The notes below the pieces were generated by a model. The model worked only from the letters and a program-made list of their open reading frames with translations. It made no database searches and was not told the DNA's origin. DNA of 64,000 nt from Fusobacterium massiliense (GTDB lineage: Bacteria > Fusobacteriota > Fusobacteriia > Fusobacteriales > Fusobacteriaceae): contig NZ_LT608327.1 in the NCBI RefSeq assembly GCF_900095705.1, positions 372,001-436,000 of the forward strand. The letters run 5' to 3'. The first letter of the stretch is position 1, and each line of letters opens with the position of its first letter. Position numbers and translations under genes: made by a program. This document shows, one piece after another, positions 2,929-5,846 of the stretch.

Positions 2929-3789
2929 TTAATCAAAATTATAATTTGTTAAAATACTATTTTCTAAATTTCCCTTATCTTTATAAAATTCATTGAATGA
3001 TATATCTATATAACCACCTAACACATTATGTACTTTAGTAAATCCTAAAGTTCTCATAAAATTTGTTGCATCAAGACTTCTATGGTTACTTCTACAATAT
3101 ACATAAATATCTTCATCTTTAGGAAGACTATCTTTTTTCATTAAGATTTCTCTAAGTGGCATATTAACTGCTCCTTTAATATGTCCTGCTTCATATTCAT
3201 AATCTTCTCTAACATCTAATAAAAATTTTTTATTTTTTACTAGTTCATCAATATCTAAAGCACAAACATCATTGCTTTCTTCTTCTTTTTGACTAGCCAT
3301 CATAGCAAGTATATTTAAAATATCGGGATTCCATTCATTATCTGTTGGATTAACTTGATATTTCATCAAATCTATCATAGTCCCTGCTTTTTCAATTATT
3401 GTTTTAACTGCTTTTAACCTAGTTTCAACATTTTTTTCATTTACTATTTGGCAACCTAATATTTTTTTGCTTTCTTCATCAAATAGAATTTTTACATAGA
3501 CAACCTTATTTGTAGGATTTTCTCCATTGTAATCATTCGATATTAACTTTTCAGATAAAAATTCAAATTTTAAACCTTGAAGTTCTCTTTCTGTAAAACC
3601 TATACTTCCAAATTTATATTCATTTAATTGAAAAATATTTATTTCAAGCATAGGTAAATCTCTATATCTATTTTTAAAATTCTTTTCAATTTCTTCTTCA
3701 GGCATTCCACCTAATTTTAAATCTTTATATATTATCTTATTAACATCATCATCAAAATATGCTGTGATATTATCTATAATTTCTATCAT
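2929..3789 (-). CDS. CoA-disulfide-reductase C-terminal domain fused to rhodanese (no FAD/NAD domains)
   Basis: 286 aa. Residues about 55-170 match the dimerisation domain of pyridine-nucleotide disulfide oxidoreductases: KFGSIGFTERELQ, a strand followed by ILGCQIV, and a helix ending ILNILAMMASQK, as in CoA-disulfide reductase/NADH oxidase. Residues about 175-275 are a rhodanese domain with FLLDVREDYEYEAGHIKGAVNMP and an active-site loop YCRSNHRS, so C232 is the persulfide cysteine. In the full enzymes two Rossmann domains and a redox cysteine precede this part; here they are absent and the gene starts normally with ATG behind AGGAGG. That ribosome site lies inside the end of the AroB-Ppx gene, which overlaps by 20 bases. 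Sulfur relay is the likely role, but the substrate is unknown. Confidence 0.8.
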   Translation of the reverse strand: MIEIIDNITAYFDDDVNKIIYKDLKLGGMPEEEIEKNFKNRYRDLPMLEINIFQLNEYKFGSIGFTERELQGLKFEFLSEKLISNDYNGENPTNKVVYVKILFDEESKKILGCQIVNEKNVETRLKAVKTIIEKAGTMIDLMKYQVNPTDNEWNPDILNILAMMASQKEEESNDVCALDIDELVKNKKFLLDVREDYEYEAGHIKGAVNMPLREILMKKDSLPKDEDIYVYCRSNHRSLDATNFMRTLGFTKVHNVLGGYIDISFNEFYKDKGNLENSILTNYNFD

Positions 3790-5782
3790 TTAAGCCTCCT
3801 AATATTGCTCCAACTAAATTATCGTTTTCTGATACAATTAAATTATTTTTTTCAAAATATTCTAAAATCGATTTTAATATTATTGTACCTCCAATTATTA
3901 CATCTTTTCTTTTGCTATCTAAGCCAATAATATCTTCATTTTTAATTACTTTATCCATAAATAAAGTTAAATTATCATTAATTTCTTGATATGTCAAGTC
4001 TGCTAAATGAATTTTTTTACTATCATAAATTTTCATTTTCTCCCTAACACTTATTTGACTTGTTGTAGTTCCAGCCACTCCAATTAAGAAAAAGTTTTCA
4101 TTTTTCATATAATTTAAATTTTCTAAATTATCAAAAATCCAATTTTTAGCTTTTTCTATATTGGAAAGAGAATAATCGTATTCTCCATTACTTAAAAAGA
4201 ATTTTTCAGTAATTCTAACTGAACCAATATTTAAACTTTTAACTTTTTCAATACCCTCAAAACTACCTAAAGTAAATTCTGTAGAGCCTCCTCCGATATC
4301 AAAAACTAATATTTTTTTATTTTTTATTTCTTCTTTAGAAAAAGAACTAACTACACCTTTAAAATTTATATATGCTTCTTGCTCTCCACTAATGCATTGA
4401 ATTTTTATATTAGCTTCTTCTAAGGCTCTTTTAATGAAATATTCTCTATTAGACGAATCTCTTGTTGCAGAAGTTGCAAAACAAATAATATTACTATCCT
4501 CAATATAATAATCATCTATAATTTCTCTATATTTTTTAAGACATTTTAATGTTCTATCAATAGCTTCTTCTTTTAAAAATTTATTTTTATTTACATCTTC
4601 TCCTAATTTAACAATTTCTAAATCTTTCACTATTTCTTTTTTTAATACTATTTTTTCTTTTTCATTTTTTGTAATAGCAATAAATAGTCTACAAGAATTA
4701 GTTCCTATATCAATACTTGCTTTTAAAAAATTTTCTTTATATTTATTTAAAATTTCTTTTATTTCTTCATATGCTATTTCTATTTTAGATAAATTTTTTT
4801 CTTCATCAATAAGTATTGTATAAATTTTACCAAAAGAATTTTTTTTATCTTTTTTCATTAAGTCTACAAACTTATCTATTGATAAATAAACTAAATCTGT
4901 ATCTATATCAAATTTTTCAAAAATTTCCTTTGCTCTAGATAAAAAGTTTTTAGAAATTTTATTTCTTAAGAAAGCTAGTTCTAAATCAAATATAATACCT
5001 TTAGATACGGCTTCTCCATGTGTGTAAACCTTATAGTCAAAAAAACTTTCTAAAGCATGAGCATAGGTATGACCCAAATTCAAAAATGCTCTTTCTTTTT
5101 TTTCATAAGGGTCTATATCAACAAAATATTTTTTTACTTTTATAGATTCTTCAACAATTTTTTCTAAAACATCGTTCCTATATTTTTTTATATTTTCAAT
5201 ATTTTCTTCTATATAACTTAGATAATCTTTATTTTTTGTCAAAAAAGAATGTTTTAATAATTCTCCCATTCCTGACTTAAACTCTTTAGTCTCCAAAGTT
5301 TTTAAAAATTCAATATCAATAATTACTTTATAAGGTTGCTTAAATGTACCCATCATATTTTTACATTTTATATGATTTATAGCTACTTTTCCTCCAACAC
5401 TTGCATCTACTTGAGCAAGTAAAGAAGTAGGAACTTGTATAAACTCTATTCCTCTCATATATGTTGAAGCTATATAGCCTCCCATATCACAGACAACTCC
5501 ACCTCCAAGACTAACAACTACTGATTTTCTTGAAAATTCATTATCAACCATAAAATCATATACAGGTAAAATTGTTTCAATCGTTTTATATTCTTCTCCA
5601 TCTTTTATAGAAAAATAAAAAATTTTATCTTTGTCTTTTAGTATATTTTTAACTTTTTCAAAATATAGATTTCCAACAGTATCATTTGAAAAAATTAATA
5701 CCTTATCAAAGTCTTTAAAAAATTTATTTAATATTGCTAAAATATCTGACCCTATATATATATCTTCAAAAATTTTTTTCAT
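3770..5782 (-). CDS. Fused 3-dehydroquinate synthase (AroB) and Ppx/GppA phosphatase
   Basis: One continuous frame of 670 aa holds two enzymes. Residues 1-350 are AroB, which cyclises DAHP to 3-dehydroquinate in the shikimate pathway: SLGGGVVCDMGGYIAS (91-106), PTSLLAQVDASVGGK, and the metal ligands in GMGELLKH, NLGHTYAHA and THGEAVS. Residues 352-670 are a Ppx/GppA exopolyphosphatase/pppGpp phosphatase core with SIDIGTNSCRL, FATSATRDSSN, FDIGGGSTE and GVAGTTT; all main motifs are kept in both halves. Two upstream in-frame starts exist. ATG at 5782 is preferred because GGAG sits 6 bases ahead of it and the -10 box at 5807-5812 leaves almost no leader for the others. The gene heads the minus-strand operon and overlaps the next gene by 20 bases. 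Confidence 0.9.
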   Translation of the reverse strand: MKKIFEDIYIGSDILAILNKFFKDFDKVLIFSNDTVGNLYFEKVKNILKDKDKIFYFSIKDGEEYKTIETILPVYDFMVDNEFSRKSVVVSLGGGVVCDMGGYIASTYMRGIEFIQVPTSLLAQVDASVGGKVAINHIKCKNMMGTFKQPYKVIIDIEFLKTLETKEFKSGMGELLKHSFLTKNKDYLSYIEENIENIKKYRNDVLEKIVEESIKVKKYFVDIDPYEKKERAFLNLGHTYAHALESFFDYKVYTHGEAVSKGIIFDLELAFLRNKISKNFLSRAKEIFEKFDIDTDLVYLSIDKFVDLMKKDKKNSFGKIYTILIDEEKNLSKIEIAYEEIKEILNKYKENFLKASIDIGTNSCRLFIAITKNEKEKIVLKKEIVKDLEIVKLGEDVNKNKFLKEEAIDRTLKCLKKYREIIDDYYIEDSNIICFATSATRDSSNREYFIKRALEEANIKIQCISGEQEAYINFKGVVSSFSKEEIKNKKILVFDIGGGSTEFTLGSFEGIEKVKSLNIGSVRITEKFFLSNGEYDYSLSNIEKAKNWIFDNLENLNYMKNENFFLIGVAGTTTSQISVREKMKIYDSKKIHLADLTYQEINDNLTLFMDKVIKNEDIIGLDSKRKDVIIGGTIILKSILEYFEKNNLIVSENDNLVGAILGGLNDRNYR

Positions 5783-5806
5783 TTTTGTCTCCATTCTTTT
5801 TTCTAT

Positions 5807-5815
5807 ATTATAACA
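5807..5815 (-). promoter_or_regulatory. Extended -10 promoter of the aroB-ppx operon
   Basis: The minus strand reads TGTTATAAT, a perfect extended -10 box, about 25 bases before the chosen ATG. No convincing -35 is visible, as expected for an extended -10 promoter. It is divergent from the galM promoter about 40 bases away. Confidence 0.6.
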
Positions 5816-5846
5816 CAAAAAAAACATATAAAAAAATATTATAAAA

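What the first reader, a model, noticed from the sequence alone, without database searches (positions are those of the whole stretch)
3770..5782. Single-frame fusion of AroB with a Ppx/GppA phosphatase
Dehydroquinate synthase (residues 1-350) and an exopolyphosphatase/pppGpp phosphatase (352-670) share one ORF, with all active-site motifs intact and almost no linker. I know of no standard pathway link between the two; AroB releases phosphate during its reaction and Ppx/GppA handles polyphosphate or (p)ppGpp, so a link to stringent control of aromatic amino acid synthesis is possible but speculative.
Basis: partly seen in the sequence, partly recalled or inferred. Interest (0 to 1): 0.6.

Follow-up and report, generated by a model that had tools for sequence, protein, structure and literature searches.

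The report
Conserved AroB–Ppx/GppA fusion of fusobacteria
In most Fusobacteriaceae examined (39 of 61 genomes), and in Fusobacterium vincentii of the F. nucleatum group, the shikimate-pathway enzyme AroB is joined to a Ppx/GppA-type phosphatase in one long protein, and in one genus that has lost key shikimate-pathway genes the AroB half has lost its active site but is still kept, which suggests it now serves as a structural part.

Summary
A 670-aa ORF (minus strand, 3770-5782) carries a 3-dehydroquinate synthase and a short Ppx/GppA phosphatase, with all checked active-site positions present and a linker of only a few residues. It is not an oddity of one strain: 39 of 61 Fusobacteriaceae genomes (12 genera), one sister-family genome, and F. 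vincentii have the same single ORF. All fused AroB halves form one clade (100/100). Stand-alone Ppx genes of other Fusobacteriaceae nest among the fused Ppx halves, so the likely history is one fusion, probably in an aroK-aroB-ppx operon, with several later losses of the AroB half. No fusion was seen in 1184 sampled genomes of three other phyla. A natural experiment: one genus (3 genomes) lacks aroA and aroC; its AroB half has lost 8-10 of 13 active-site residues, yet stays in frame, keeps a predicted DHQS fold and evolves with dN/dS about 0.17, like the Ppx half. The Ppx half is intact throughout. PPK1/PPK2 were not found in the window genome and Rel is present, so pppGpp or another nucleotide is a likelier substrate than polyphosphate; this is untested. 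Stringent control of AroB is not shown.

The parts
3770..5782 (-). AroB-Ppx/GppA fusion gene, 670 aa
   Evidence: same single ORF in 40/98 Fusobacteriota genomes and in F. vincentii
4736..5782 (-). residues 1-349: 3-dehydroquinate synthase half; 13 active-site positions assigned by motif (R110, D126, K132, K141, N142, E174, K177, R231, N235, H238, H242, H255, K313) invariant in 20/20 aligned fused proteins outside genus g12
4724..4735 (-). residues 350-353: junction; no start codon in the 30 codons before D358 of the Ppx domain
3800..4723 (-). residues 354-661: short Ppx/GppA phosphatase half; D358, N362, R365, R441, E469, D495, G497, S500, E502, R625 invariant in all 23 aligned fusions
5789..5792 (-). 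GGAG, Shine-Dalgarno-like, 6 nt before the ATG at 5782
   Evidence: sequence
5807..5812 (-). TATAAT, possible -10 element (no matching -35 box reported by the scan)
   Evidence: sequence; number of promoter-like sites in the region not above chance
2929..3789 (-). next gene, overlapping the fusion by 20 nt (Pyr_redox_dim + rhodanese protein); conserved neighbour in the genus and in F. vincentii, not part of the fusion

Best explanation
One polypeptide with two independent enzymes. The N-terminal half is the organism's only 3-dehydroquinate synthase (second step of the shikimate pathway). The C-terminal half is a short Ppx/GppA phosphatase, most likely acting on pppGpp (to ppGpp) or another nucleotide rather than on polyphosphate in this organism. 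The fusion probably arose once, at the base of Fusobacteriaceae and a sister family, by joining neighbouring genes in an aroK-aroB-ppx operon. The two reactions are not obligatorily coupled. The AroB half, a homodimer in known DHQS structures (general knowledge), probably became a folding and dimerisation platform for the Ppx half, and is therefore kept even where its chemistry is no longer needed. Shown by sequence: the fusion, its conservation, intact active sites, the single-clade history of the AroB half, AroB decay with pathway loss. Inferred: the catalytic activities, pppGpp as substrate, the platform role.
For: One AroB and one Ppx in the window genome, which has aroA and aroC. AroB active-site residues invariant in the 20 aligned fused proteins outside g12, Ppx catalytic residues in all 23. 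Genus g12 (G050-52): no aroC, no aroA above cut-off, only a MurA-level match; AroB half lost 8-10 of 13 active-site positions, Ppx catalytic positions kept; NG86 dN/dS G050/G051 0.174 for AroB and 0.169 for Ppx; predicted fold still matches DHQS at TMt 0.91. AroB halves one clade 100/100; solo Ppx nested among fused, single-clade alternatives rejected (AU p 5e-8 and 2e-47). aroK directly upstream of the fusion in G039, G040, G044, G045, G062; G045 has aroK>AroB-Ppx where its congener G046 has aroK>Ppx. PPK1 and PPK2 not found in the window genome; Rel/SpoT present. Where PPK1 exists, 18 of 21 Fusobacteriaceae genomes have a second Ppx beside a PPK gene. In g14 the stand-alone Ppx lies beside a RelA_SpoT-domain gene. 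The 18-310 fragment of V. cholerae GppA suffices for pppGpp conversion (PMC7552824).
Against: Two short PPX-GppA homologues of M. tuberculosis do not hydrolyse pppGpp (PMC3411833), so the substrate cannot be read from sequence. Purifying selection on the dead AroB half might only reflect avoidance of misfolding of a fused domain. Stand-alone Ppx in several lineages shows the AroB half is not strictly needed. No activity or proteomic data were found. dS is above 1 in the g12 comparison, so the absolute dN/dS is rough.
Confidence: 0.55

Rival explanations
1. Regulatory fusion: binding of (p)ppGpp or phosphate in the Ppx half changes AroB activity, putting an early step of aromatic synthesis under stringent control.
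For: Compact junction with confident relative placement in the model (pTM 0.87); Rel present nearly everywhere; fusion kept in 13 genera.
Against: AroB half replaced by an unfused AroB in several lineages that keep chorismate synthase; fusion kept in g12 where AroB is catalytically dead and aroA and aroC are gone. AroB is not usually the controlled step of the pathway (DAHP synthase is; general knowledge).
Confidence: 0.12
2. Frozen operon fusion: adjacent aroB and ppx lost the intervening stop once; the product works as two tethered enzymes with no benefit and persists because re-splitting needs a new start site.
For: aroK-AroB-Ppx order in early-branching lineages; several later losses of the AroB half; no conserved start codon at the junction.
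Against: After loss of aroA and aroC in g12 the AroB half was not deleted in three species and remains constrained, although a clean deletion is possible (G046).
Confidence: 0.25
3. The Ppx half is mainly an exopolyphosphatase.
For: NCBIfam TIGR03706 exo_poly_only matches (202.9 bits, below its cut-off of 307); M. tuberculosis Rv0496, a short homologue, is a polyphosphatase (PMC3411833).
Against: PPK1 and PPK2 not detected in the window genome nor in 23 of the 40 fused genomes; genomes with PPK1 mostly carry another Ppx next to a PPK gene.
Confidence: 0.2
4. The polypeptide is cleaved, or the Ppx half is also made separately, so two proteins act in the cell.
For: None positive; some members have isolated in-frame start codons near the junction.
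Against: No conserved start codon at the junction; compact ordered junction; retention of a dead AroB half in g12.
Confidence: 0.06

Closest known systems
3-dehydroquinate synthase, AroB (TIGR01357; e.g. PDB 5eks, 3okf)
   Same: Full-length domain, all checked active-site motifs, equivalog score above cut-off, fold match TMt up to 0.90
   Different: Carries a C-terminal Ppx/GppA domain; forms its own AroB clade, distinct from the stand-alone AroB of other fusobacteria
Short PPX/GppA phosphatases (Aquifex aeolicus PPX/GPPA, PDB 1t6c/2j4r; M. tuberculosis Rv0496)
   Same: About 300-aa domain with the metal and catalytic residues
   Different: N-terminally fused to AroB; the C-terminal regions of the long Ppx/GppA enzymes are absent
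Bifunctional shikimate kinase/3-dehydroquinate synthase (NF010556, NF010627; Herbaspirillum HSERO_RS20920, PMC7311316) and fungal AROM
   Same: AroB joined to another enzyme in one chain
   Different: In those the partner belongs to the same pathway; here it is a phosphatase outside the pathway and lies on the C-terminal side

Membership tests
AroB (3-dehydroquinate synthase) | Equivalog model score above curated cut-off | tested here: met
   TIGR01357 326.7 vs 305 bits
AroB (3-dehydroquinate synthase) | Metal ligands (E, H, H) and active-site Lys/Arg/Asn/His set | tested here: met
   13/13 positions present, invariant in 20/20 aligned fusions outside g12; positions assigned by motif, roles from general knowledge of DHQS
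AroB (3-dehydroquinate synthase) | Later pathway steps present in the genome | tested here: met
   aroA and aroC adjacent at G000:C6:206447-208737; other steps not searched
AroB (3-dehydroquinate synthase) | DHQS activity | not testable with these tools
   needs enzyme assay
AroB, genus g12 members | Active-site residues | tested here: not met
   8-10 of 13 changed, including metal ligand H238 in all three and H255 in two
PPX/GppA phosphatase | Pfam Ppx-GppA domain above cut-off | tested here: met
   168.5 vs 27 bits
PPX/GppA phosphatase | Metal-binding Asp/Glu and catalytic Arg/Glu named for MTB-PPX1 (PMC3411833) | tested here: met
   D495, E502, R441, E469 invariant in 23/23; correspondence by motif
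GppA (pppGpp 5'-phosphatase) | Hydrolysis of pppGpp to ppGpp | not testable with these tools
   genome context favours it (no PPK found, Rel present) but short homologues differ (PMC3411833)
Exopolyphosphatase (TIGR03706) | Score above curated cut-off | tested here: not met
   202.9 vs 307 bits
Exopolyphosphatase | A polyphosphate kinase in the same genome | tested here: not met
   no PPK1 or PPK2 match in the window genome

The most novel reading that the evidence does not exclude
The AroB half has been turned into a dedicated structural subunit (pseudoenzyme) of an alarmone phosphatase: a biosynthetic enzyme first fused, then, in genus g12, stripped of its catalysis and kept under selection as a scaffold or ligand sensor (for example of NAD or a sugar phosphate) for the phosphatase.
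Probability: 0.3. Interest if true: 0.75.

Novelty: new variant of a known kind. Interest (0 to 1): 0.55.

Why it matters
A fusion kept through much of a bacterial family, with a genus in which one half has died but stayed, allows a direct test of why enzymes with no known pathway link are joined. It concerns a group that includes F. vincentii of the F. nucleatum group, for which I found no work on its Ppx/GppA enzyme in the open library. It also warns annotators: a best-hit call would name this gene only aroB or only exopolyphosphatase, and in genus g12 an 'aroB' call would be wrong.

Tried and rejected
Frameshift or assembly artefact: rejected, because 40 genomes and F. vincentii show the same ORF. 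Fusion limited to the window's genus: rejected (13 genera). Independent repeated fusions: disfavoured, because all fused AroB halves form one clade and the junctions align. AroB remnants upstream of stand-alone Ppx genes: searched by tblastn, nothing convincing (best E 0.038). Literature on such a fusion: no papers matched; searches of Fusobacterium nucleatum with exopolyphosphatase or dehydroquinate synthase gave only papers whose titles are unrelated, one of which I checked; only open-licence papers are held. Which record the window comes from was not determined; it is a Fusobacteriaceae genome of 1.81 Mb, about 81% identical in DNA to F. vincentii and F. animalis over 8 kb. Promoter scan uninformative.

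Full report
OBSERVATION. The reported ORF is real but lies on the minus strand. From the ATG at 5782 it encodes 670 residues; GGAG sits 6 nt upstream of that ATG and a TATAAT-like hexamer at 5807-5812, so the alternative upstream ATG at 5827 is unlikely. The 3' end overlaps the next gene (Pyr_redox_dim + rhodanese, 2929-3789) by 20 nt. Pfam and NCBIfam find a complete 3-dehydroquinate synthase (above the aroB equivalog cut-off) and a complete Ppx-GppA domain. AlphaFold2 on an alignment of 23 fused proteins gives pLDDT 91.9 and pTM 0.87, with a junction of only a few residues; Foldseek matches DHQS crystal structures and the Aquifex PPX/GPPA enzyme. All checked active-site positions of both halves are present.

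DISTRIBUTION. Among 98 Fusobacteriota genomes, 40 carry both halves in one open frame: 39 of 61 in the window's family (12 genera) and one genome of a sister family (the count combines the listed matches with the ORF check). Fusobacterium vincentii SB055 has it too, 72% identical over its full length, with the same downstream genes. The window genome has one AroB, one Ppx and adjacent aroA and aroC elsewhere. Family f4 mostly has AroB alone. No spanning match appeared in 1184 sampled genomes from three other phyla.

HISTORY. In the AroB tree the 33 fused halves form one clade (100/100), apart from the stand-alone AroB of unfused Fusobacteriaceae, most of which group with family f4 AroB; those examined lie in aro gene clusters. 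In the Ppx tree the stand-alone copies of Fusobacteriaceae are nested among the fused ones; holding either set together as one clade is rejected. Stand-alone Ppx genes of G025-29 sit in the same syntenic place as the fusion (an M48 peptidase gene on one side, selD-selA-selB on the other). In genus g10, G045 has aroK followed by AroB-Ppx and G046 has aroK followed directly by Ppx. aroK is also directly upstream in G039, G040, G044 and G062. The simplest reading is one fusion within an aroK-aroB-ppx operon and at least three, probably four or five, later losses of the AroB half.

NATURAL EXPERIMENT. Three genomes of genus g12 (92-99% complete) have no chorismate synthase and no EPSP synthase above cut-off, only a MurA-level match. 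Their proteins are still single ORFs of about 690-710 residues. Of 13 DHQS active-site positions, 8 to 10 are changed, including one metal ligand in all three and a second in two, while the Ppx catalytic positions are unchanged. The AroB branch leading to g12 is long (1.35 against 0.50 for the Ppx half), as expected on loss of function, but between g12 members the AroB half is again constrained: dN/dS 0.174 against 0.169 for Ppx in G050/G051 (NG86, dS above 1, so rough). Its predicted fold still matches DHQS at TMt 0.91, although the model used an alignment that includes intact relatives. This ties the AroB half to the shikimate pathway where the pathway exists, argues that the two halves are made as one chain, and suggests a structural role of the AroB half.

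WHAT THE PPX HALF DOES. PPK1 and PPK2 were not found in the window genome, and in 23 of 40 fused genomes neither was found. Where PPK1 exists, 18 of 21 Fusobacteriaceae genomes have another Ppx near PPK1 or PPK2; G018, G039 and G040 do not. Rel/SpoT-domain genes are nearly universal (96 of 98), and in genus g14 the stand-alone Ppx lies beside one. These facts favour a nucleotide such as pppGpp over polyphosphate. Against overconfidence: two short homologues from M. tuberculosis do not cleave pppGpp (PMC3411833), whereas the 18-310 fragment of V. cholerae GppA complements a gppA mutant (PMC7552824).

CONCLUSION. A genuine, ancient, widely kept bifunctional fusion. Direct metabolic or regulatory coupling is not supported by the pattern of losses; a structural role of the AroB half is the better guess. 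Novelty: both domains are well known; I found no description of their fusion in the open library, but could not query UniProt or InterPro, where the architecture may be listed.

Noticed in passing
L052:7907-9097, L056:8214-9404 (G024-29) versus L034, L035, L036, L037 downstream of the fusion: The stand-alone Ppx of G024-29 carries a 90-aa C-terminal extension that is a separate small ORF downstream of the fusion in G018-23: a second fusion event at the same locus. Function unknown.
   Followed up: partly
window 2929-3789 (-): 286-aa protein with a pyridine-nucleotide-disulphide-oxidoreductase dimerisation domain plus rhodanese but no FAD or NAD domain matched; kept beside the fusion in the genus and in F. 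vincentii.
   Followed up: no
L059:6689-7756 and the same place in other g14 genomes: A 355-aa RelA_SpoT-domain protein in convergent orientation next to the stand-alone Ppx.
   Followed up: no
G038:C1:2184099-2185019 (L067): This genome has both the fusion and a second, stand-alone AroB in an aro gene cluster.
   Followed up: partly
PLSDB record NZ_CP084075.1: Labelled a plasmid of F. vincentii, but 2.1 Mb long and carrying the fusion and its neighbours; very likely the chromosome.
   Followed up: no
L040:10210-10479 and other g2, g5, g13, g14 loci: A small acylphosphatase gene follows the fusion or the stand-alone Ppx in several genera.
   Followed up: no
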